DNA of 61,030 bases, from positions 1 to 61,030 of the IMG/VR virus record IMGVR_UViG_3300025849_000037; one strand, 5' to 3'. This document shows, one piece after another, positions 758-12,204 of the stretch. Each line of letters begins with the position of its first letter. The first letter of the stretch is position 1. Both the position numbers and the translations under genes were made by a program. Below the pieces are notes generated by a model. The model searched no databases. It was not told the origin of the DNA and worked only from the letters and a program-made list of their open reading frames with translations. This stretch comes from a virus.

Positions 758-1480
758 GCTTGGGCTAGAGGGCTCTCCTCGCGCGGGTATCAATAATAGC
801 CGAGAAAGGGGCATGTTGCAGGTATCGATAATGGTTGTACATTCGGCTTGTCGAACGGGATGAGATATGAGACTCTTGGCGGAGCACATAAGAAGTATCT
901 ACCCGACCATCGAGGCCGAAAGGCTGACAAGCGCCAAACACATTAACAGCGCAGCCGATGTTGAGCAAGCTAACCTAGAGGAACCAACACCCGAGGGATT
1001 TAATAGCTGCGAACGACCAACCACACGTCCTCTACTAGGTACGGATGGAACACTGAGAGAGCCGCACGGCTTTGCAGCCTGCAGACTCAGTAAGTACAGC
1101 CTACCGAAAGACGAAGAGCCGAACGGATAGAGCGCCTTGGCGCAGGATGCACAACGGAACACGATGAATAGAAAGCGAGCAGCAGCAATGCAGTGAGCAG
1201 TAGTAACCGCTAGTACCGATACCGCAAGAGTCCACAAGTAAGCCCTAGAAACAAGTAAGACGCTGTTGGTTGCTTTGCCCAAAGGATGATGCTGATTGTA
1301 TCGATTGAGCCCGTAGGATGCGCACCAAGGTAGCGCCCCAAAAGACTACGCAATCGAGTGACCCGTAAGCCATCAACCAAGTAGGCATTGACCCATTCCC
1401 GTGGGGCGCTGAGTAAAGTACATGTTACGCAGAGTATATGTACCGAGACTCACAGCAGGAGCGAGACCTGCCGCCCTACC
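758..1480 (+). ncRNA. Candidate large structured non-coding RNA
   Basis: About 720 bases are GC-rich, lack a convincing gene and hold many paired segments. AGCCGA 798-803 pairs with 843-848. GGCC-GAAA-GGCT forms a tetraloop near 914-925. A 10-pair helix joins 973-982 to 1028-1040 with a 3-base bulge. ACTGAG 1052-1057 pairs with 1086-1091. A three-stem nested hairpin spans 1301-1357. GTACAT 1418-1423 pairs with 1438-1443, and GCAGG 1455-1459 with 1467-1471. Size, GNRA loops and phage context recall the large ornate RNAs (GOLLD, ROOL), but I recognise no conserved core. Boundaries are approximate. An 87-codon frame at 867-1130 is open but unconvincing. Confidence 0.4.
1301..1357 (+). ncRNA. Nested three-stem hairpin inside the structured region
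   Basis: TCGATTG (1301-1307) pairs with CAATCGA (1351-1357), CGTAG (1312-1316) with CTACG (1346-1350), and GCGC (1320-1323) with GCGC (1333-1336). The stems are collinear with internal loops between them. Sixteen pairs in correct nested order within 57 bases is unlikely by chance and is the strongest local sign of RNA structure here. Confidence 0.6.
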
Positions 1481-1486
1481 TAACCC

Positions 1487-1509
1487 GAGCCAACCACGGC
1501 TCACAAATT
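1487..1509 (+). promoter_or_regulatory. Leader hairpin copy A (GAGCC-AACCAC-GGCTC, then ACAAATT)
   Basis: The stem GAGCC/GGCTC encloses the loop AACCAC and is followed by ACAAATT eight bases before the ATG at 1518. The loop and tail are identical to those before the genes at 1988 and 3167. The three-way junction found before the other copies is absent; the bases upstream belong to the larger structured region instead. Confidence 0.8.
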
Positions 1510-1517
1510 GAATCAAA

Positions 1518-1850
1518 ATGACCAACGCTGAAAAATTAATCGCAAGCCTAAGCCCCGTAAACACTAACCTAGATGGCGCACCAATCGTATGCTTAACGGC
1601 AGACCCGTACCTAGGTAAGTTTATGGTTAAGCAGCAGTTCAAACTAAGCCTAGGTAAGCCTACAACGCTGACCACATTGCACGACCCCGAAAGCGGTAGA
1701 CGAATCTTCACGGCACGTGATGAGGAAAGTCACGATGTTGCCGAGGGCGCTATGTCTAAGCTAGACTACGAATGCATGCGTAAATCGGAAGAGAACGCAA
1801 AACTAAGAACAGCATCGGTGGTTGCTCAATTGGGCTTCCTAGGTTGCTAA
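1518..1850 (+). CDS. Hypothetical early protein, 110 aa
   Basis: This is the first convincing gene of the left block. The start is chosen because the ATG lies just after the conserved leader hairpin and ACAAATT, at nearly the same distance as in the other leader-bearing genes. The product is soluble, with no membrane segment, Cys cluster or family motif that I recognise; the C-terminal third is charged and probably helical. Sharing a leader with the AAA+ ATPase gene suggests co-regulation and early expression. Function unknown. Confidence 0.7.
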   Translation: MTNAEKLIASLSPVNTNLDGAPIVCLTADPYLGKFMVKQQFKLSLGKPTTLTTLHDPESGRRIFTARDEESHDVAEGAMSKLDYECMRKSEENAKLRTASVVAQLGFLGC

Positions 1851-1888
1851 TTACCCGTGCTTCCCATAGCGAGGCGGCACGTTATTTA

Positions 1889-1979
1889 AGTGAGGGCAGC
1901 GGTAGACTGAAACAAGGTCTGCGCCTAGGTCGTGCTAGGACTGCTCACTATTAATCGAGTCAACCACGACTCACAAATT
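1889..1979 (+). promoter_or_regulatory. Structured leader copy B (three-way junction plus hairpin)
   Basis: P1 joins AGTGAG 1889-1894 to CTCACT 1944-1949. P2 is AGAC/GTCT (1904-1907, 1917-1920) with loop TGAAACAAG. P3 is CCTAG/CTAGG (1924-1928, 1935-1939) with loop GTCGTG. After the linker TATTAATC comes P4, GAGTC-AACCAC-GACTC (1957-1972), then ACAAATT. In P4 the change GCC/GGC to GTC/GAC relative to copies A and C keeps pairing. It lies directly upstream of the ATG at 1988. Confidence 0.85.
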
Positions 1980-1987
1980 CAATCAAG

Positions 1988-2218
1988 ATGGCTAAAGTCA
2001 CTAGAAGTACTGCAGGCGCTAAGTTCGTCAGCAGCAAAGAAAAATTCAATGGGGCTCAGTTCGCTGAGTTCAACGTGAACGTTAAAGTAAGCAAGGGACG
2101 TGCTGAGCGGTTAGCTATGAAGGCTAGACTAGCTGAGGCTAAGGCTGTCATGGCTTTGCCCGTCAGCGCAGGATTCGTTGAAGTTAAGTCTAACCTAAAT
2201 TTCGCATACGCTGTATGA
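1988..2218 (+). CDS. Small basic hypothetical protein, 76 aa
   Basis: A 76-residue Lys/Ala-rich protein preceded by structured leader copy B. The start is set by the leader: the ATG lies 8 bases after ACAAATT. The middle part (about residues 30-55) is a basic Ala-rich helix that could contact nucleic acid, but no fold is recognised. Its stop overlaps the next gene's start by 4 bases, opening a tight run of genes to 2968. Confidence 0.7.
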   Translation: MAKVTRSTAGAKFVSSKEKFNGAQFAEFNVNVKVSKGRAERLAMKARLAEAKAVMALPVSAGFVEVKSNLNFAYAV

Positions 2219-2463
2219 AGAACGCTATAAAAGAAGTCATGTTCGACCTATTGGTGAACGGCTCAGTATCGGAAATGATGAAGACCATGCAGCTAGGTAT
2301 GCAGCATGACGAATACAACATCCGCTTCGTAGCGCAGCTATGTGCAGATGAGGCAGATACTATCGAGGAAGAGGGCGCTATGGTCGCAGACTATCCTAGT
2401 CTAGTTCATAGATGCGAATTGTACGCTGACGTAGTAACATTAATCGTAGATAGCAAGTTATGA
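2215..2463 (+). CDS. Small acidic hypothetical protein, 82 aa
   Basis: The ATG overlaps the stop of the preceding gene (ATGA), so translation is probably coupled. The product is acidic, Met-rich at the N-terminus and probably all helical, with no recognised motif. It is one of several very small proteins in the early operon, a class that in phages often modifies host functions; that role is only inferred. Confidence 0.7.
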   Translation: MKNAIKEVMFDLLVNGSVSEMMKTMQLGMQHDEYNIRFVAQLCADEADTIEEEGAMVADYPSLVHRCELYADVVTLIVDSKL

Positions 2464-2651
2464 ATCTAGTGAAACTAACCATAGCTGAAAGGCTAGAGAA
2501 AGAGCAGCTACATGAGGCATACGACCTAAGTAGAGCGTGCGGTGAGTTTAACGTATCCGAGGATATTGCTGAACTGATGTACTGCCCATGCGATGAGTAC
2601 CAAGATTTTCGTGAATCAATAATTAAAGGCCTAAAAGGAGAAAAGTTATGA
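2460..2651 (+). CDS. Small hypothetical protein, 63 aa
   Basis: It overlaps the preceding gene by 4 bases and the following gene by 4 bases (ATGA junctions). It contains Cys-x16-Cys-Pro-Cys near residues 26-46 (a C-P-C-D-E stretch); too few Cys are present to propose a zinc site with confidence. It is otherwise charged and helical. Unknown function. Confidence 0.65.
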   Translation: MNLVKLTIAERLEKEQLHEAYDLSRACGEFNVSEDIAELMYCPCDEYQDFRESIIKGLKGEKL

Positions 2652-2968
2652 GAGATTTCGTAGTAGGTACGCTACTCATTAGTGGTGGTGTTTGGTTCAG
2701 TCTAGGCTTCGCTTACGCTGACCGAGGCATGCTGCAAGCAGCAGCGGTATTCGGATTGCTAACCGCAGTCTTCTTGGTATGTGAGTTCATATACAATCGC
2801 GTCAAGCCTGCACCGCAGGTAGACGTTAAATGGATAGAAGTTAAACTGCAGGCCGTGCGCCATGGCGATGAGTTCTTCATCAAGAACCTAGAAACGGGCA
2901 CGCTGCGCCCTAGCAGCCGTGACGAAGTTTCCGAGTTATGGAACAAAGGTCAAATCACAATTAAGTAA
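2648..2968 (+). CDS. Small membrane protein, two TM helices, 106 aa
   Basis: Two hydrophobic segments (about residues 4-26 and 30-49) are followed by a soluble tail of about 55 residues that is probably cytoplasmic. AAAGGAGAAAAG just before the start is one of the few Shine-Dalgarno-like sequences in the window. It ends the overlapping cluster 1988-2968. Early phage membrane proteins often act in superinfection exclusion or host takeover, but nothing specific shows this here. Confidence 0.7.
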   Translation: MRDFVVGTLLISGGVWFSLGFAYADRGMLQAAAVFGLLTAVFLVCEFIYNRVKPAPQVDVKWIEVKLQAVRHGDEFFIKNLETGTLRPSSRDEVSELWNKGQITIK

Positions 2969-2984
2969 TCTAAAACCCAACAAT

Positions 2985-3065
2985 ATGCTAGTAGCAACAT
3001 TAGTACTCACCTTAGTAGGTGCATCGTCTTCATTGGCTGTCGCAGGCCTCAAGTCTAACAAGTAA
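2985..3065 (+). CDS. Possible 26-aa hydrophobic peptide
   Basis: A short frame starts with ATG at 2985 and encodes a hydrophobic Leu/Val/Ala stretch ending in a basic tail (LKSNK). It would make a single-pass membrane peptide. It fills most of the gap before leader copy C. No independent evidence of translation; low confidence. Confidence 0.3.
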   Translation: MLVATLVLTLVGASSSLAVAGLKSNK

Positions 3066-3073
3066 AAAATCAA

Positions 3074-3159
3074 TCTCTATGGCTGACTGCAATAAGGTCA
3101 GCGCCTACATCGTGGTAGGGTAGAGACCTATTAACCGAGCCAACCACGGCTCACAAATT
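3074..3159 (+). promoter_or_regulatory. Structured leader copy C (three-way junction plus hairpin)
   Basis: P1 is TCTCTA 3074-3079 with TAGAGA 3121-3126. P2 is CTGAC 3083-3087 with GTCAG 3097-3101, loop TGCAATAAG. P3 is CCTAC 3104-3108 with GTAGG 3115-3119, loop ATCGTG. The linker CTATTAACC leads to P4, GAGCC-AACCAC-GGCTC (3137-3152), then ACAAATT. P1, P2 and P3 differ in sequence from copies B and D but keep pairing, while loops are conserved. Confidence 0.85.
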
Positions 3160-3166
3160 TAATTTT

Positions 3167-4528
3167 ATGTCACGTTTTGTAGCAGATGTGTGGGGTGTAG
3201 TAGCACTAGCACTAAATCAAGAAGATTCAAAGGTTCGCAACGTAGCGACCAAGTCTCAAATCCTATTCCGTACAGCAGGTATCAACCATGCAACCACGGG
3301 TAAGATGAGCACTAAGCAAGCCGTAGTGAAAATCAACGCATTAGTTCAAATGCATGTTGAGGCATTCAGCAATGGAAAATTGGGCGGGGAAGACTTAGAA
3401 TGTGTTCACGTTATCGTAGCGTACAAGTCCGATACCGATACACTCATGGTGTACGGGAACAGCGATGATACGCTAGGCGGTAAGCGCTTCGAGGAACTAG
3501 GCGAATACTCAAAATCTAGCGAGAAGAGATTCGGCAAATGGTACTTCAACATGGGGCAATTCCAAGATGCTGTTGCAGTCATGCTAGACCAATCATCAGC
3601 GCCCGAATTAATAGAGGCAGAAACCACAAAAACTGAAACCATGGGACAAACACCACAAGAATTGATGCTGCAGGCTATGAGCATGATGCAGCAAGGCGGC
3701 TCGATAGATGAGGCTGCTGTTGAGAAGATTGTAGACAAGCGTATCAAGGCTCAGTCTGCGACTAAGGTTGAAGTAGTGACAGCTACGGCAGTCAAGAAAG
3801 TAGACAAGGCTCACAAGAACTTTGCTGATGCTGTTGCGCTTGTAGGCCTAGGCAAGAATGTCACGCTGATTGGCGAGGCAGGGAGTGGTAAGTCTTACGG
3901 GGCTATCCAAATGGCTCGAGCGCTAGACCAAGAGTACGCTGTTGTATCATGTCACGGCAAGATGCAGTCGTTTGATTTGGTGGGCGCTATGTCTCCTACA
4001 ACGGGCGAATACATTAGCACTTCGCTACGTGATGCATACGAGAATGGTAAGGTGCTCATCCTCGATGAGTTTGACCGCTCTAACAACGAGACTACCATTG
4101 CGCTCAACGGAATCTTAGCAGGCGATTGCTACGGCTTTCCCGATGGTATGGTGCAGCGCCATGCAGACTTCAAGGTCATCGCATGTCAAAACACTTTCGG
4201 CACGGGTACATCTAAGGTGTACGGCTCAGCTAAGCCGCAGGATGGCTCAACGCTCACACGATTCACACGTGTTGTGTGGGACATCGACAGCAAGCTAGAG
4301 AAAGCTATATGTGGTGATACCCTTGCAACGAACGCTGTGCAGCGCATCCGCTCTAATGCTAAAGGCCTTGGATACGACCAAGTGCTTATCACACCGCGTC
4401 AAGCCATAGATGCTAACCAAATGGTACACAGCCTAGGTTGGTCAGTCAAGAAGGCTATCGAGTTCACTTGTCTCAACGGCCTAGCGGCTGATGTTCGCAA
4501 GAGATTATTGCAGGACGTTTCACTATAA
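3167..4528 (+). CDS. AAA+ ATPase, MoxR/CobS-like
   Basis: A 453-residue protein. Residues 1-150 form an unrecognised N-terminal domain, followed by a Met/Gln-rich linker. A P-loop ATPase domain follows: Walker A GEAGSGKS at 236-243, Walker B VLILDE at 296-301, sensor-1 CQNT near 340-343 and a basic LTRFTR at 363-368 as a candidate arginine finger. The pattern is that of the MoxR/CobS branch, whose members remodel partner complexes, often with a von Willebrand-type partner. The gene just downstream may be that partner. It carries leader copy C. The cellular target is unknown. Confidence 0.85.
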   Translation: MSRFVADVWGVVALALNQEDSKVRNVATKSQILFRTAGINHATTGKMSTKQAVVKINALVQMHVEAFSNGKLGGEDLECVHVIVAYKSDTDTLMVYGNSDDTLGGKRFEELGEYSKSSEKRFGKWYFNMGQFQDAVAVMLDQSSAPELIEAETTKTETMGQTPQELMLQAMSMMQQGGSIDEAAVEKIVDKRIKAQSATKVEVVTATAVKKVDKAHKNFADAVALVGLGKNVTLIGEAGSGKSYGAIQMARALDQEYAVVSCHGKMQSFDLVGAMSPTTGEYISTSLRDAYENGKVLILDEFDRSNNETTIALNGILAGDCYGFPDGMVQRHADFKVIACQNTFGTGTSKVYGSAKPQDGSTLTRFTRVVWDIDSKLEKAICGDTLATNAVQRIRSNAKGLGYDQVLITPRQAIDANQMVHSLGWSVKKAIEFTCLNGLAADVRKRLLQDVSL

Positions 4529-4535
4529 CGTTCTT

Positions 4536-4619
4536 AGTCTGCGGCTAACTGAAATAAGGTTAGCGCCTAGGTCATGCTAGGGCAGACTGCTATTAACGCC
4601 CCAACCACGGGCACAAATT
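4536..4619 (+). promoter_or_regulatory. Structured leader copy D (three-way junction plus hairpin)
   Basis: P1 is AGTCTGC 4536-4542 with GCAGACT 4582-4588 (7 pairs). P2 is CTAAC 4545-4549 with GTTAG 4559-4563, loop TGAAATAAG. P3 is CCTAG 4566-4570 with CTAGG 4577-4581, loop GTCATG. The linker CTATTAAC leads to P4, GCCC-CAACCAC-GGGC (4598-4612), then ACAAATT. It lies in the gap between the AAA+ ATPase gene and its downstream neighbour. Confidence 0.85.
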
Positions 4620-4620
4620 A

Positions 4621-5517
4621 ATGCTTATGAGATATGAAATAATTGAAGGCAAGCGCATGCTCACCAAGGTGCAGACTACATTCTTTGAGTTTGTAGAGGG
4701 CTCTAATCGTGAGGGAAACGTACACAATTCTTCGGACAGCGATGGCTCTAGTTCGTTTTACGGAAACATCAAGTCCTACCAAGAGATGTACGATGCGTGC
4801 TACAGCGGACTGAATGTCAAGAAGATGATGAAAGCTACCGCAGACTTAAAGAGTCTAGTCAACCATGAGGTTGAGACCCCACGCAAAGCGATAGTAGGTG
4901 AGGCATTCAACGCTGCGGCATTCGCAGCAGGGCATCCTTACCACTACTACAAGGATGCTGATGAGTACGGAAAGCCTAGAGTACACTTAACATACAGCAC
5001 CAACGCTGTTGCAGGTGTACGTTCCGAGCAGTTCATTCGCCATGGCGCTGCACTATGTGCAGTCGCTGATGAGATAGCTGAGCAGGTAGATGTAAAGATT
5101 AGTCTATACATCACTAACGTGGGTGTTCTTGGCGGCAATGGCTGTCAAATAGTGACAATCAAAGACTACAACGAGGTTATCGACATCGCTAGAGTAGCTG
5201 CAACAGCGCATCCTAGTTTCTTTCGTCGCATCGGATTCTCATGGTTCGAGAACGCTAGCAGACTGATAGACTCACGTTGTTCTTCGGGATATGGCGGCTC
5301 TATGACGGGTACTAGCAGAGGGGCAGTCATCAGCGATGAAGAGTTCAAAGAGTGGGTAGGTGCTGCTAACGATGAAATGTTGGTAGACTTTCCTGCGCCC
5401 GATGAAGACCAATTCACGGATGATGACTACACCGCTGAATGGATTGCGAGCGCTATGGAAGACATTAGCGACTCAGTAGAAAAAGATGTTAAACATTGTA
5501 AATTATTTGGACTATGA
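4621..5517 (+). CDS. Probable partner of the AAA+ ATPase, DUF7192-like
   Basis: A 298-residue soluble protein. Residues 1-75 are Ser-rich and acidic; 80-200 form a predicted alpha/beta core with a Gly-rich VGVLGGNG stretch. From memory it resembles phage proteins grouped as DUF7192, which often follow a CobS-like ATPase and look like degenerate von Willebrand/CobT-type partners. The leader ends right at the ATG at 4621; a second ATG at 4627 is equally plausible. Adjacency and the shared leader type suggest joint action and joint control. Biochemical role unknown. Confidence 0.6.
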   Translation: MLMRYEIIEGKRMLTKVQTTFFEFVEGSNREGNVHNSSDSDGSSSFYGNIKSYQEMYDACYSGLNVKKMMKATADLKSLVNHEVETPRKAIVGEAFNAAAFAAGHPYHYYKDADEYGKPRVHLTYSTNAVAGVRSEQFIRHGAALCAVADEIAEQVDVKISLYITNVGVLGGNGCQIVTIKDYNEVIDIARVAATAHPSFFRRIGFSWFENASRLIDSRCSSGYGGSMTGTSRGAVISDEEFKEWVGAANDEMLVDFPAPDEDQFTDDDYTAEWIASAMEDISDSVEKDVKHCKLFGL

Positions 5518-6149: not shown

Positions 6150-6364
6150 ATTTCCAAGTAAGAGTTCCCGTGATTATCACTAGGACATTGCGCACACATG
6201 TGACGATAGACCTAGACGATGAGCAGTTCGATAAGTTCATCACCGACCAAATCCTTATAACGAATCAAGACGAGTTAGAGGATTTATATTACAGCCAATT
6301 CAATGAGGAAGACTTCTTCGAAGAGAGTCTAATCTTTGAGGTTGAGGATGCTTACGAGCATTAA
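6146..6364 (+). CDS. Small acidic hypothetical protein, 72 aa
   Basis: It is coupled to the preceding gene by a 4-base overlap. The product is strongly acidic (long runs of Asp/Glu), beta-rich at the start and helical at the end. Highly acidic small early proteins are sometimes DNA mimics, but there is no direct sign of this. Its stop codon abuts the tRNA-like element that starts at 6364. Confidence 0.65.
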   Translation: MNFQVRVPVIITRTLRTHVTIDLDDEQFDKFITDQILITNQDELEDLYYSQFNEEDFFEESLIFEVEDAYEH

Positions 6365-6431
6365 GCGTGTATGGTACTCTTGTCCGAGCATGGCTCCAAG
6401 AGGTAGGGCGGTTCGATTCCGCCCCACGCTA
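6364..6431 (+). ncRNA. tRNA-like element lacking a D-arm
   Basis: AGCGTG (6364-6369) pairs with CACGCT (6425-6430). GGGCGG (6406-6411) pairs with CCGCCC (6419-6424) around a canonical TTCGATT T-loop. The acceptor and T stems are directly contiguous, as in tRNA. The middle arm is CTCTTG/CAAGAG (6377-6382, 6397-6402) enclosing 14 bases with an inner GAGC/GCTC. There is no room for a D-arm and no normal 7-base anticodon loop, so this is not a standard tRNA. It could be a decayed tRNA or a tRNA mimic. Confidence 0.55.
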
Positions 6432-6437
6432 CACAGC

Positions 6438-6457
6438 GAACGTTCACTATAACGTTC
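6438..6457 (+). promoter_or_regulatory. AACGTT-flanked copy of the TTCACTATAAC motif
   Basis: This is the most symmetrical copy of an 11-base motif seen four times on the plus strand. Here AACGTT flanks it on both sides. It lies between the tRNA-like element and the gene at 6538. It could be a phage-specific promoter or a protein-binding site; the core CACTATA is also the core of T7-type promoters, but no T7-type polymerase gene is seen. Confidence 0.4.
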
Positions 6458-6537
6458 CGCTCTCAATGACCTTGCAAGCATGTGGTTATGACGCGCAAGT
6501 AGAGAGCACCATATTTAAATTCATAAATACAATTATC

Positions 6538-7342: not shown

Positions 7343-7430
7343 TTACTTAGTAACTCACACGTGTACGTATACGCACTATGAATATATATATGTAATCTCT
7401 TCTCCCTTATAGGGGAGAAGAAGAGATTAC
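7343..7430 (+). other. Palindrome-rich gap with a long RNA hairpin
   Basis: GTTAC-TTA-GTAAC lies at 7345-7357, and ACACGTGT and GTACGTATAC follow. At 7392-7430 a long stem pairs GTAATCTCTTCTCCC with GGGAG...AAGAGATTAC, interrupted only by a 3-base AAG bulge, around a loop of about 5-6 bases. No U-run follows, so it is not a standard terminator; it could be a processing site or an mRNA end-stabiliser. Confidence 0.6.
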
Positions 7431-7457
7431 TCAAGATAATAACTTAAATTAATACCT

Positions 7458-10013: not shown

Positions 10014-10044
10014 TGCCCCTGCTAGAAATAGTGGGGGCATTTTT
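10014..10044 (+). terminator. Intrinsic terminator after the SSB-like gene
   Basis: An 11-pair stem joins TGCCCCTGCTA (10014-10024) to TAGTGGGGGCA (10029-10039) with two G-U pairs and a GAAA tetraloop, followed by five T. It ends the recombination operon. TACATTTG at 10006-10013, just before it, resembles a -7 box but has no TTG at the right distance. Confidence 0.9.
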
Positions 10045-10046
10045 AC

Positions 10047-10125
10047 GGGGGTGTATGGTGGGTGATACCTAAAACAATTGTGTAAGTCTTTGGGTGTTGC
10101 GGAAGTTCGACTCTTCCCTCCCTCA
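10047..10125 (+). ncRNA. tRNA-like element 2 (T-arm and acceptor only)
   Basis: GGAAG-TTCGACT-CTTCC (10101-10117) is a textbook T-arm. CTCCCTC (10118-10124) can pair with GGGGGTG (10047-10053) with one G-U and one mismatch. TA follows as at tRNA positions 8-9, then a possible 3-pair D-stem (GGT/ACC). The middle 30 bases form no anticodon arm. The segment GTGTATGGT after the 5-prime acceptor strand is shared with the element at 6364. Probably a degenerate tRNA or mimic. Confidence 0.4.
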
Positions 10126-11494: not shown

Positions 11495-12204
11495 TTCTAA
11501 CTAAGAATAGAATGGTGGAGTTCTTTCCATCGGACAATCGCTACCTGCATTACGTTGCTCGAAAGAACGGTCTGTTCTTCATCAACGATGACGATGTGGA
11601 GTCTGCGAGGTTCTTTGCTATCGAGGCTGTTATGCGGCTAGTCAGTAAGGAAGTAGAGTACGAGGACGAGAAGCACTTGCAGAGCGTAGTGCAGATGAAT
11701 GTCCTGCGTGCTATCTATCGCATGATAGAATGGAATAGCGCTAAGAAAAACTCACAAGACATACGCAGCGAGTCTGAGTTCATCGGAAGTGATGATGACG
11801 GATTCTCTACGTATATCGAGTTAGCTGAGTCGGATGACAAACCATACGACAACACAATGGCTATCATCGAGGAGTACGCTCAAGAGGTGCTAGACGATAT
11901 CGGCTATGCCGTTTACAAAATGACTTTATCCGACGTTGCAAGAAAGGATATGGCTGAGACATTGGGTATATCGCCCGAAGCTATTCGCCAAAGACAAAAG
12001 AGCAACGTTAAAAAACTAAAACTAAAATACGACAGAGATGAGAATGACAAAGAAAGTTTTCGAGAGAATCGTAGAAAGATACGTGACAGAATACGACGTA
12101 AACCCATTGCAGAAAACAAGGCAACGGAACGTGCTAGTGCCGAGGCAAACGCTTTTCTACATACTCAATACGAAATTCCATATTCACTTCCAAACATTGA
12201 GTGA
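11491..12204 (+). CDS. Sigma-factor-like protein
   Basis: A 237-residue protein. Residues 35-90 are helical, with aromatic and basic residues in a pattern compatible with sigma region 2 (weak). Residues 145-180 match sigma region 4: LSDVARKDMAETLGISPEAIRQRQKSNVKKLK, a helix-turn-helix that reads -33/-35 elements. The last 57 residues are basic and overlap the next gene by 167 bases. It could redirect host RNA polymerase to phage promoters. The region 4 match is good; a full sigma function is inferred. Confidence 0.65.
   Translation: MILTKNRMVEFFPSDNRYLHYVARKNGLFFINDDDVESARFFAIEAVMRLVSKEVEYEDEKHLQSVVQMNVLRAIYRMIEWNSAKKNSQDIRSESEFIGSDDDGFSTYIELAESDDKPYDNTMAIIEEYAQEVLDDIGYAVYKMTLSDVARKDMAETLGISPEAIRQRQKSNVKKLKLKYDRDENDKESFRENRRKIRDRIRRKPIAENKATERASAEANAFLHTQYEIPYSLPNIE

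What the first reader, a model, noticed from the sequence alone, without database searches (positions are those of the whole stretch)
1487..4619. A repeated structured RNA leader before three (four) early genes, with compensatory changes
Copies at 1889-1979, 3074-3159 and 4536-4619 share the order P1, P2 (loop TGMAAYAAG), GCG, P3 (loop with TCRTG), CTATTAAY linker, P4 (loop AACCAC), ACAAATT, then ATG within about 20 bases. Stems differ but keep pairing: P1 AGTGAG/CTCACT, TCTCTA/TAGAGA, AGTCTGC/GCAGACT; P2 AGAC/GTCT, CTGAC/GTCAG, CTAAC/GTTAG; P3 CCTAG or CCTAC with partner; P4 GAGYC/GRCTC or GCCC/GGGC. Copy A has P4 only. Conserved loops with covarying stems are the signature of a real RNA. I do not recognise it as hammerhead, twister or a known riboswitch. 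It sits at the ribosome-loading zone, so translation control or protein recognition is the simplest idea.
Basis: partly seen in the sequence, partly recalled or inferred. Interest (0 to 1): 0.9.

Follow-up and report, generated by a model that had tools for sequence, protein, structure and literature searches.

The report
tRNA-like dividers in phage early mRNA
A marine bacterial virus places a small, precisely built RNA fold that resembles the top half of a tRNA before each separately started early gene, probably so that the host's tRNA-trimming enzymes cut one long message into pieces.

Summary
Three copies (1894-1946, 3074-3126, 4536-4588) form a fixed 53-nt three-way junction, followed by a linker, hairpin P4 and ATG. 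Across six related phage contigs, 98% of cells pair and 13 of 18 pairs show compensatory changes. A model built from the window copies alone finds all relatives' copies (E 1e-14 to 1e-20) and none elsewhere. Rfam has no match. Two corrections: P1 of copy B is GGGCAGC/ACTGCTC, and copy A also has a P1/P3-like domain.

The geometry is that of a tRNA top half: P1 is 7 bp, P3 is 5 bp and abuts it directly, giving a 12-bp stack, then one base and usually CTA. At the same gene borders, related phages carry other folds with the same geometry. Some are acceptor-plus-T-arm minihelices with a canonical TTCGANT loop. Best explanation: interchangeable tRNA mimics that punctuate the polycistronic early mRNA for RNase P and/or RNase Z, with P4 capping the new 5' end. 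Structure and interchangeability are shown; cleavage is inferred. I found no earlier report of such punctuation in phages in the open-access library. The 53-nt fold is a new RNA class.

The parts
1402..1478 (+). Copy A top-half-like domain: P1A 1402-1408/1472-1478 (7 bp), P3A 1455-1459/1467-1471 (5 bp, 7-nt loop AGCGAGA) directly abutting; 3' end of a longer conserved noncoding region
   Evidence: 100% cells paired, 5 of 12 pairs with compensatory changes in 6 contigs
1479..1509 (+). Base C, linker CTAACCC, hairpin P4-A (GAGCC 1487-1491 / GGCTC 1498-1502, loop AACCAC), ACAAATT; ATG at 1518
1894..1946 (+). Copy B, type I three-way junction: P1 7 bp, G, P2 6 bp (loop TGAAACAAG), G, P3 5 bp (loop GTCGTG)
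   Evidence: 75 bits
1947..1979 (+). Base A, linker CTATTAATC, P4-B (GAGTC 1957-1961 / GACTC 1968-1972), ACAAATT; ATG 1988
3074..3126 (+). Copy C, type I three-way junction, before the AAA_5 ATPase gene
   Evidence: 70.1 bits
3127..3159 (+). Base C, linker CTATTAACC, P4-C (GAGCC 3137-3141 / GGCTC 3148-3152), ACAAATT; ATG 3167
4514..4533 (+). Upstream hairpin P0 (loop CACTAT) that overlaps the stop codon of the ATPase gene, 2 nt before copy D
   Evidence: similar hairpin at this border in L003 and L004; role inferred
4536..4588 (+). Copy D, type I three-way junction, before the DUF7192 gene
   Evidence: 73.9 bits
4589..4619 (+). Base G, linker CTATTAAC, P4-D (GCCC 4598-4601 / GGGC 4609-4612), ACAAATT; ATG 4621
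6364..6430 (+). Element E, type II: acceptor-like AGCGTG(T)/(C)CACGCT, TATGGTA, extra hairpin, canonical T-arm GGCGG-TTCGATT-CCGCC
   Evidence: similar elements in L004, L005, L006
10047..10124 (+). Element F, type II: GGGGGTG/CTCCCTC acceptor-like helix (6 of 7 pairs), T-arm GGAAG-TTCGACT-CTTCC, then A CTAATTTAATT and ATG 10146

Best explanation
The leaders are mRNA-embedded mimics of the tRNA top half, used as punctuation in a phage early polycistronic mRNA. Shown: each separately started early gene studied here is preceded by a module made of a 12-bp stack (7-bp P1 plus an abutting 5-bp hairpin), one base, usually CTA, a linker, usually hairpin P4, an unpaired ACAAATT-type leader and ATG. 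Shown: the insert can be a 53-nt three-way junction (type I), a related junction with the T-loop-like sequence in P3 (type I'), a canonical acceptor/T-arm minihelix (type II) or the end of a long conserved noncoding region (copy A), and these replace one another at orthologous gene borders. Inferred: the host's RNase P cuts at the 5' end of P1 and/or RNase Z cuts after the base that follows P1, which separates the cistrons. Inferred: hairpin P4, about 7-10 nt from the new 5' end, protects the downstream mRNA; a hairpin sometimes seen upstream protects the other product. Inferred: in type I the T-loop-like UGNRA loop of P2 packs against the P3 loop and builds an elbow with swapped roles.
For: Covariation of type I and blind recovery in relatives. 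P1 = 7 bp, P3 = 5 bp with no base between in all type I copies and also in copy A. Canonical TTCGANT T-arms with an abutting acceptor-like helix at the same borders in L005 and L006; all but one of the hits at that threshold are on the gene strand, with 0-1 per shuffled control. Orthology of genes B, C and D confirmed: before the ATPase gene the fold is type I (window, L001), I' (L003, L004, L005) or II (L006); before the DUF7192 gene it is I (window, L003, L004) or II (L005, L006). After the single base, CTA follows in 22 of 28 modules (after correcting six coordinates by one or more bases). In the window the modules lie at real gaps, not at overlapping ATGA junctions. Unrelated phage contigs carry type II minihelices, 19 of 26 with an ATG gene within 90 nt downstream. 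Literature: acceptor + T stem-loop is enough for RNase P, and the 12-bp T/acceptor length is its measuring device (PMC11143913); t-elements mark cleavage sites in plant mitochondria (PMC8003010).
Against: No cleavage data exist. In type I the loop on the stacked 5-bp arm is RUCRUG, not a T-loop; the T-loop-like sequence is on the other arm, so tRNA mimicry of type I rests on geometry and position. A blind search for any 7+5-bp stack is not selective in single sequences (shuffles reach similar scores). Some type II acceptor helices have only 5-6 pairs. The wider type II set is a mixture: 44% have at least 6 acceptor pairs against 20% expected. Two copies (L004 B, L005 B) lack P4.
Confidence: 0.55

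Rival explanations
1. Translation-control leader: the junction and P4 regulate ribosome loading on the next gene, perhaps bound by a phage or host protein that recognises the ACCAC loop.
For: P4 has a near-invariant ACCAC loop with a covarying stem in front of ATG; modules precede separately started genes.
Against: Does not explain replacement of the junction by canonical T-arm minihelices or the conserved 7+5-bp geometry. The start-codon region itself is unpaired.
Confidence: 0.2
2. Antitermination RNA of the HK022 put kind: nascent early RNA loads onto RNA polymerase so that it reads through terminators.
For: Early operon, repeated modules, terminator-like hairpins in some gaps (e.g. 10014-10042).
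Against: Modules recur at internal gene borders and are swapped for tRNA-like minihelices; no model of put RNA was available to test, and the paper search gave nothing.
Confidence: 0.07
3. tRNA-binding or tRNA-sensing RNA: the UGNRA loop of P2 and the P3 loop form an interdigitated T-loop pair that docks on a tRNA elbow, as in T-boxes or RNase P.
For: P2 loop UGNRAYAAG fits a pentanucleotide T-loop (alignment; the UGNRA consensus is from own knowledge); interdigitated T-loops recognise tRNA elbows (PMC4919913).
Against: Only one loop fits a T-loop; no anticodon-reading or 3'-end-reading part; type II at the same borders is itself tRNA-like rather than tRNA-binding.
Confidence: 0.08
4. Decaying tRNA genes left between phage genes without function.
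For: Type II arms resemble tRNA T-arms; a T-arm half matched tRNA-Arg genes of Streptomyces phages.
Against: Strong compensatory change in type I and type II, fixed 53-nt size, fixed linker and P4, conserved position at gene borders across phages whose proteins are about 60% identical.
Confidence: 0.03
5. The three-way junction is itself a small self-cleaving ribozyme.
For: Small three-way junction at mRNA borders where a cut would make sense.
Against: Junctions hold only one G each (plus one bulge in some); no Rfam ribozyme match; the invariant bases sit mostly in hairpin loops.
Confidence: 0.04

Closest known systems
t-elements of plant mitochondria and the tRNA punctuation model (PMC8003010 and references in it)
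   Same: tRNA-like folds between genes of a polycistronic RNA mark where tRNA-processing nucleases cut mRNA ends.
   Different: Here in a dsDNA phage; several interchangeable folds, one with no canonical T-arm; fixed downstream linker and P4 hairpin. Cleavage not shown.
Minimal RNase P substrates (acceptor stem + T stem-loop; PMC11143913)
   Same: Type II elements are natural versions: 6-7-bp acceptor, 5-bp T stem, TTCGANT loop, 12-bp stack.
   Different: They sit inside phage mRNA, carry a TATGGTA remnant and mostly end in N-CTA instead of N-CCA.
P1/P7 phage C4 antisense RNA and the his polycistronic mRNA, natural non-tRNA RNase P substrates (cited in PMC11143913; details from own knowledge)
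   Same: Phage or polycistronic RNA trimmed by host RNase P.
   Different: Single cases of other structure; not a repeated module at many gene borders.
tmRNA tRNA-like domain
   Same: Acceptor/T-arm without an anticodon arm; weak Rfam match of the T-arm only.
   Different: No tag reading frame and no tmRNA core; scores far below gathering.
GOLLD and ROOL large phage RNAs (PMC12286853)
   Same: Large noncoding phage RNA, often beside tRNAs; the region before copy A is about 650-850 nt and ends in a tRNA-like domain.
   Different: No Rfam match even at E up to 10.

Membership tests
Canonical tRNA | 7-bp acceptor stacked directly on 5-bp T stem | tested here: met
   Type I P1 7 bp + P3 5 bp abutting; copy A 7 + 5; type II 6-7 + 5
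Canonical tRNA | T-loop TTCRANY on the stacked arm | tested here: not met
   Type I loop is RUCRUG, copy A AGCGARA; met only in type II
Canonical tRNA | Anticodon arm and detection by a tRNA finder | tested here: not met
   ARAGORN: none in window, one tRNA-Tyr call in L006 only
t-element / RNase P-RNase Z punctuation | tRNA-like fold at borders of a polycistronic mRNA, on the mRNA strand | tested here: met
   that the genes share one mRNA is inferred from their spacing
t-element / RNase P-RNase Z punctuation | Cleavage at the acceptor ends | not testable with these tools
   No transcript data
Rfam families (hammerhead, twister, riboswitches, tmRNA, GOLLD, ROOL and others) | Covariance-model match | tested here: not met
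   No gathering hit in the window; none on the elements up to E 10 except a T-arm fragment at 0.48; relatives likewise
Interdigitated T-loop tRNA binder (T-box, RNase P S-domain) | Two paired pentanucleotide T-loops | tested here: inconclusive
   One UGNRA loop present in all copies; P3 loop UCRUG not a standard T-loop
HK022 put antitermination RNA | put RNA fold and antitermination | not tested
   No model on hand; paper search empty

The most novel reading that the evidence does not exclude
A phage lineage punctuates its early mRNA with interchangeable tRNA top-half mimics. One is a new 53-nt fold that rebuilds the acceptor/T-arm stack with the T-loop moved to the neighbouring arm. Minimal acceptor/T-arm versions of the same device are scattered through unrelated phages and missed by tRNA finders.
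Probability: 0.45. Interest if true: 0.88.

Novelty: new variant of a known kind. Interest (0 to 1): 0.76.

Why it matters
If right, phages use the host's tRNA-trimming enzymes as scissors for mRNA, in the way mitochondria use tRNA punctuation. The same enzymatic readout would be served by several unrelated folds, which gives a natural test of what RNase P and RNase Z really need. It would also explain a class of intergenic phage sequence that annotation programs leave blank, and it provides a new RNA fold of fixed size for structural work. The central prediction is a simple in vitro cleavage assay.

Tried and rejected
Type I pattern in 84,980 bacterial and archaeal genomes: 15 hits, none with the full set of three stems, about half in one conserved coding sequence. 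A wider type I pattern in IMG/VR found only the same relatives. ATPase searches with one protein and with an alignment found the same five contigs. No DNA match in the cultured-phage collection. A pseudoknot P2 loop AATA with linker TATT was dropped because copy B has AACA. Pairing of the P4 loop AACCAC with the GTGGTT loop downstream of element E is possible, but both are nearly invariant so it cannot be tested. A loop-blind 7+5-bp scan is not selective. RNAalifold on the region before copy A gave z -7 for 730-1484 but only -2.2 for 730-1395 with a stricter shuffle, so only its 3' domain is firmly structured. Four type II elements searched in cultured phages gave nothing but a tRNA-Arg half. 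Literature searches found no report of phage mRNA punctuation by tRNA mimics; the library is open-access only.
Full report
WHAT WAS CHECKED. The window is a 61,030-base virus record. Early genes read rightward to about 18.5 kb and structural genes leftward after it. Its primase-helicase is closest to Maribacter phage Panino (34% over 91%), then Cellulophaga and Flavobacterium phages, so a flavobacterial host is likely (inference). The claimed copies are real. Each is exactly 53 nt: P1 (7 bp), G, P2 (6 bp, 9-nt loop UGNRAYAAG), G, P3 (5 bp, loop RUCRUG), and the 3' strand of P1 follows P3 with no base between. Some relatives have one extra base in P2 (54 nt).

IS IT MORE THAN CHANCE. On the three window copies alone 98.1% of cells pair and 8 of 18 pairs changed on both sides. 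A protein search with the ATPase gene after copy C found five contigs, one near-identical and four at 59-63%. Adding their copies, 13 of 18 pairs have compensatory changes, 0 of 500 shuffles reach the score, and slid partners fall to 29-38% paired. Model R2 from the window copies alone finds eight copies in the relatives at E 1e-14 to 1e-20 and none in Panino or Cellulophaga phage phi12:1. Model R1, built from all copies, finds three in the window, none in Panino and no real hit in over 1 Mb of other held contigs. G-U pairs occur, and all copies lie on the mRNA strand, so this is RNA. Rfam has nothing.

CORRECTIONS. The register shared by all copies is GGGCAGC with ACTGCTC, whose last pair is C-A in the window and T-A in L001. 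Copy A is not P4 alone. It ends a conserved noncoding region, and its last part has a 7-bp helix (1402-1408/1472-1478) with a 5-bp hairpin abutting it, 100% paired with compensatory changes in six contigs.

WHAT IT IS. The same gene borders in relatives carry different folds (orthology of genes B, C and D). Before the 76-aa gene B: type I in window, L001, L004, L005 and L006; in L003 the copy-A domain leads directly into the gene. Before the ATPase gene C: type I in window and L001; a variant (I') in L003, L004 and L005 (GGGTAG, small hairpin CGGC-TWTAG-GTCG, stem-loop GCAGT-TTCAAGGG-ACTGC, CTACCC); in L006 an acceptor-like helix around a canonical T-arm CGGGG-TTCGATT-CCCCG. Before the DUF7192 gene D: type I in window, L003 and L004; T-arm type in L005 and L006. 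Two further window gaps hold T-arm elements (6364-6430, 10047-10124). The shared features are the 7+5-bp stack, one base, then CTA in 22 of 28 modules (six module ends that were misplaced in that printout were corrected by eye), a TAAYC or similar linker and usually P4. P4 occurs 19 times with stems GACCC/GGGTC, GAGCC/GGCTC, GAGTC/GACTC and GCCC/GGGC around (N)ACCAC, once ACCCAC.

WHY tRNA MIMICRY. Seven plus five base pairs stacked end to end is the acceptor/T-arm half of tRNA. In bacteria a hairpin of acceptor, T stem and T loop is cut by RNase P at the normal site, and the 12-bp length is its measuring device (PMC11143913). Type II elements are that minimal substrate. Type I and copy A keep the length but not the T-loop on the stacked arm; type I has a T-loop-like UGNRA sequence on the neighbouring arm. 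RNase P RNA pairs its GGU with the base after P1 and the next two bases (the RCC of RCCA); CTA would allow a G-U pair in place of one G-C (inference).

WIDER OCCURRENCE. It is a mixture. With perfect T-arms, 40% (44% for short spacers) have at least six acceptor pairs against 20% when partners are shuffled, and 14-15% have seven against 3%. A selected set of 16 shows dense compensatory change in the six outer acceptor pairs and the T stem (selection was partly on pairing, so this is supportive only). Of 26 better elements, 19 have an ATG gene within 90 nt downstream and 19 an open frame ending just upstream. About a third have a hairpin starting 1-4 nt after the acceptor end, comparable to P4 here.

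MECHANISM. Shown: structure, geometry, position and interchangeability. Inferred: RNase P and/or RNase Z cut at the two ends of P1, separate the early cistrons and leave P4 near the new 5' end of the next mRNA. In the window the modules lie in true intergenic gaps and are absent where genes overlap as ATGA, as expected if each module starts a new translated unit. Confidence 0.55, because no transcript ends are known and type I lacks the canonical T-loop position.

COMPARISON AND NOVELTY. It works like plant-mitochondrial t-elements (PMC8003010) but is not a member by sequence, and cleavage is untested. It is not a tRNA (no anticodon arm, no canonical T-loop in type I). The 53-nt junction is a new RNA class seen only in these phages. 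I found no published case of phage mRNA punctuation by tRNA mimics in the open-access library. I grade it a new variant of a known kind.

Noticed in passing
window about 730-1395: Conserved noncoding region of roughly 650-850 nt before the first early gene, present in all relatives, ending in the copy-A domain. No Rfam match. RNAalifold z -7 with the 3' domain, -2.2 without it: a candidate large phage RNA.
   Followed up: partly
window 6431-6515: After tRNA-like element E: hairpin with loop CACTAT and changing stems (GAACGTT, AATCGTT, GAATGTT), then a second conserved hairpin with CCTCAGCGACC ... GTGGTTAT ... AGAGGG in L004-L006.
   Followed up: partly
window 10014-10043: Terminator-like hairpin GCCCCTGCTAGAAATAGTGGGGGC-ATTTTT immediately upstream of element F; a similar pair lies at L004 about 11660-11732.
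   Followed up: no
window 7343-7457: Intergenic gap with a long hairpin (AATCTCTTCTCCC-TTATA-GGGGAGAAGAAGAGATT) and no tRNA-like element.
   Followed up: no
L152 4941-5031 (Maribacter phage Panino PP540027.1): Unannotated perfect 7-bp acceptor-like helix and T-arm (GTAGG-TTCGAGT-CCTAC) with a 60-nt insert in the gap before the gene at 5054: a candidate in a cultured phage.
   Followed up: partly
L045 (three copies) and L109 (two copies): Unrelated phage contigs with repeated acceptor/T-arm minihelices, most of them followed by a small hairpin.
   Followed up: partly
window 3167-5517: Genes after copies C and D are an AAA_5 ATPase and a DUF7192 protein, kept together in all relatives that extend this far; function unknown.
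   Followed up: no
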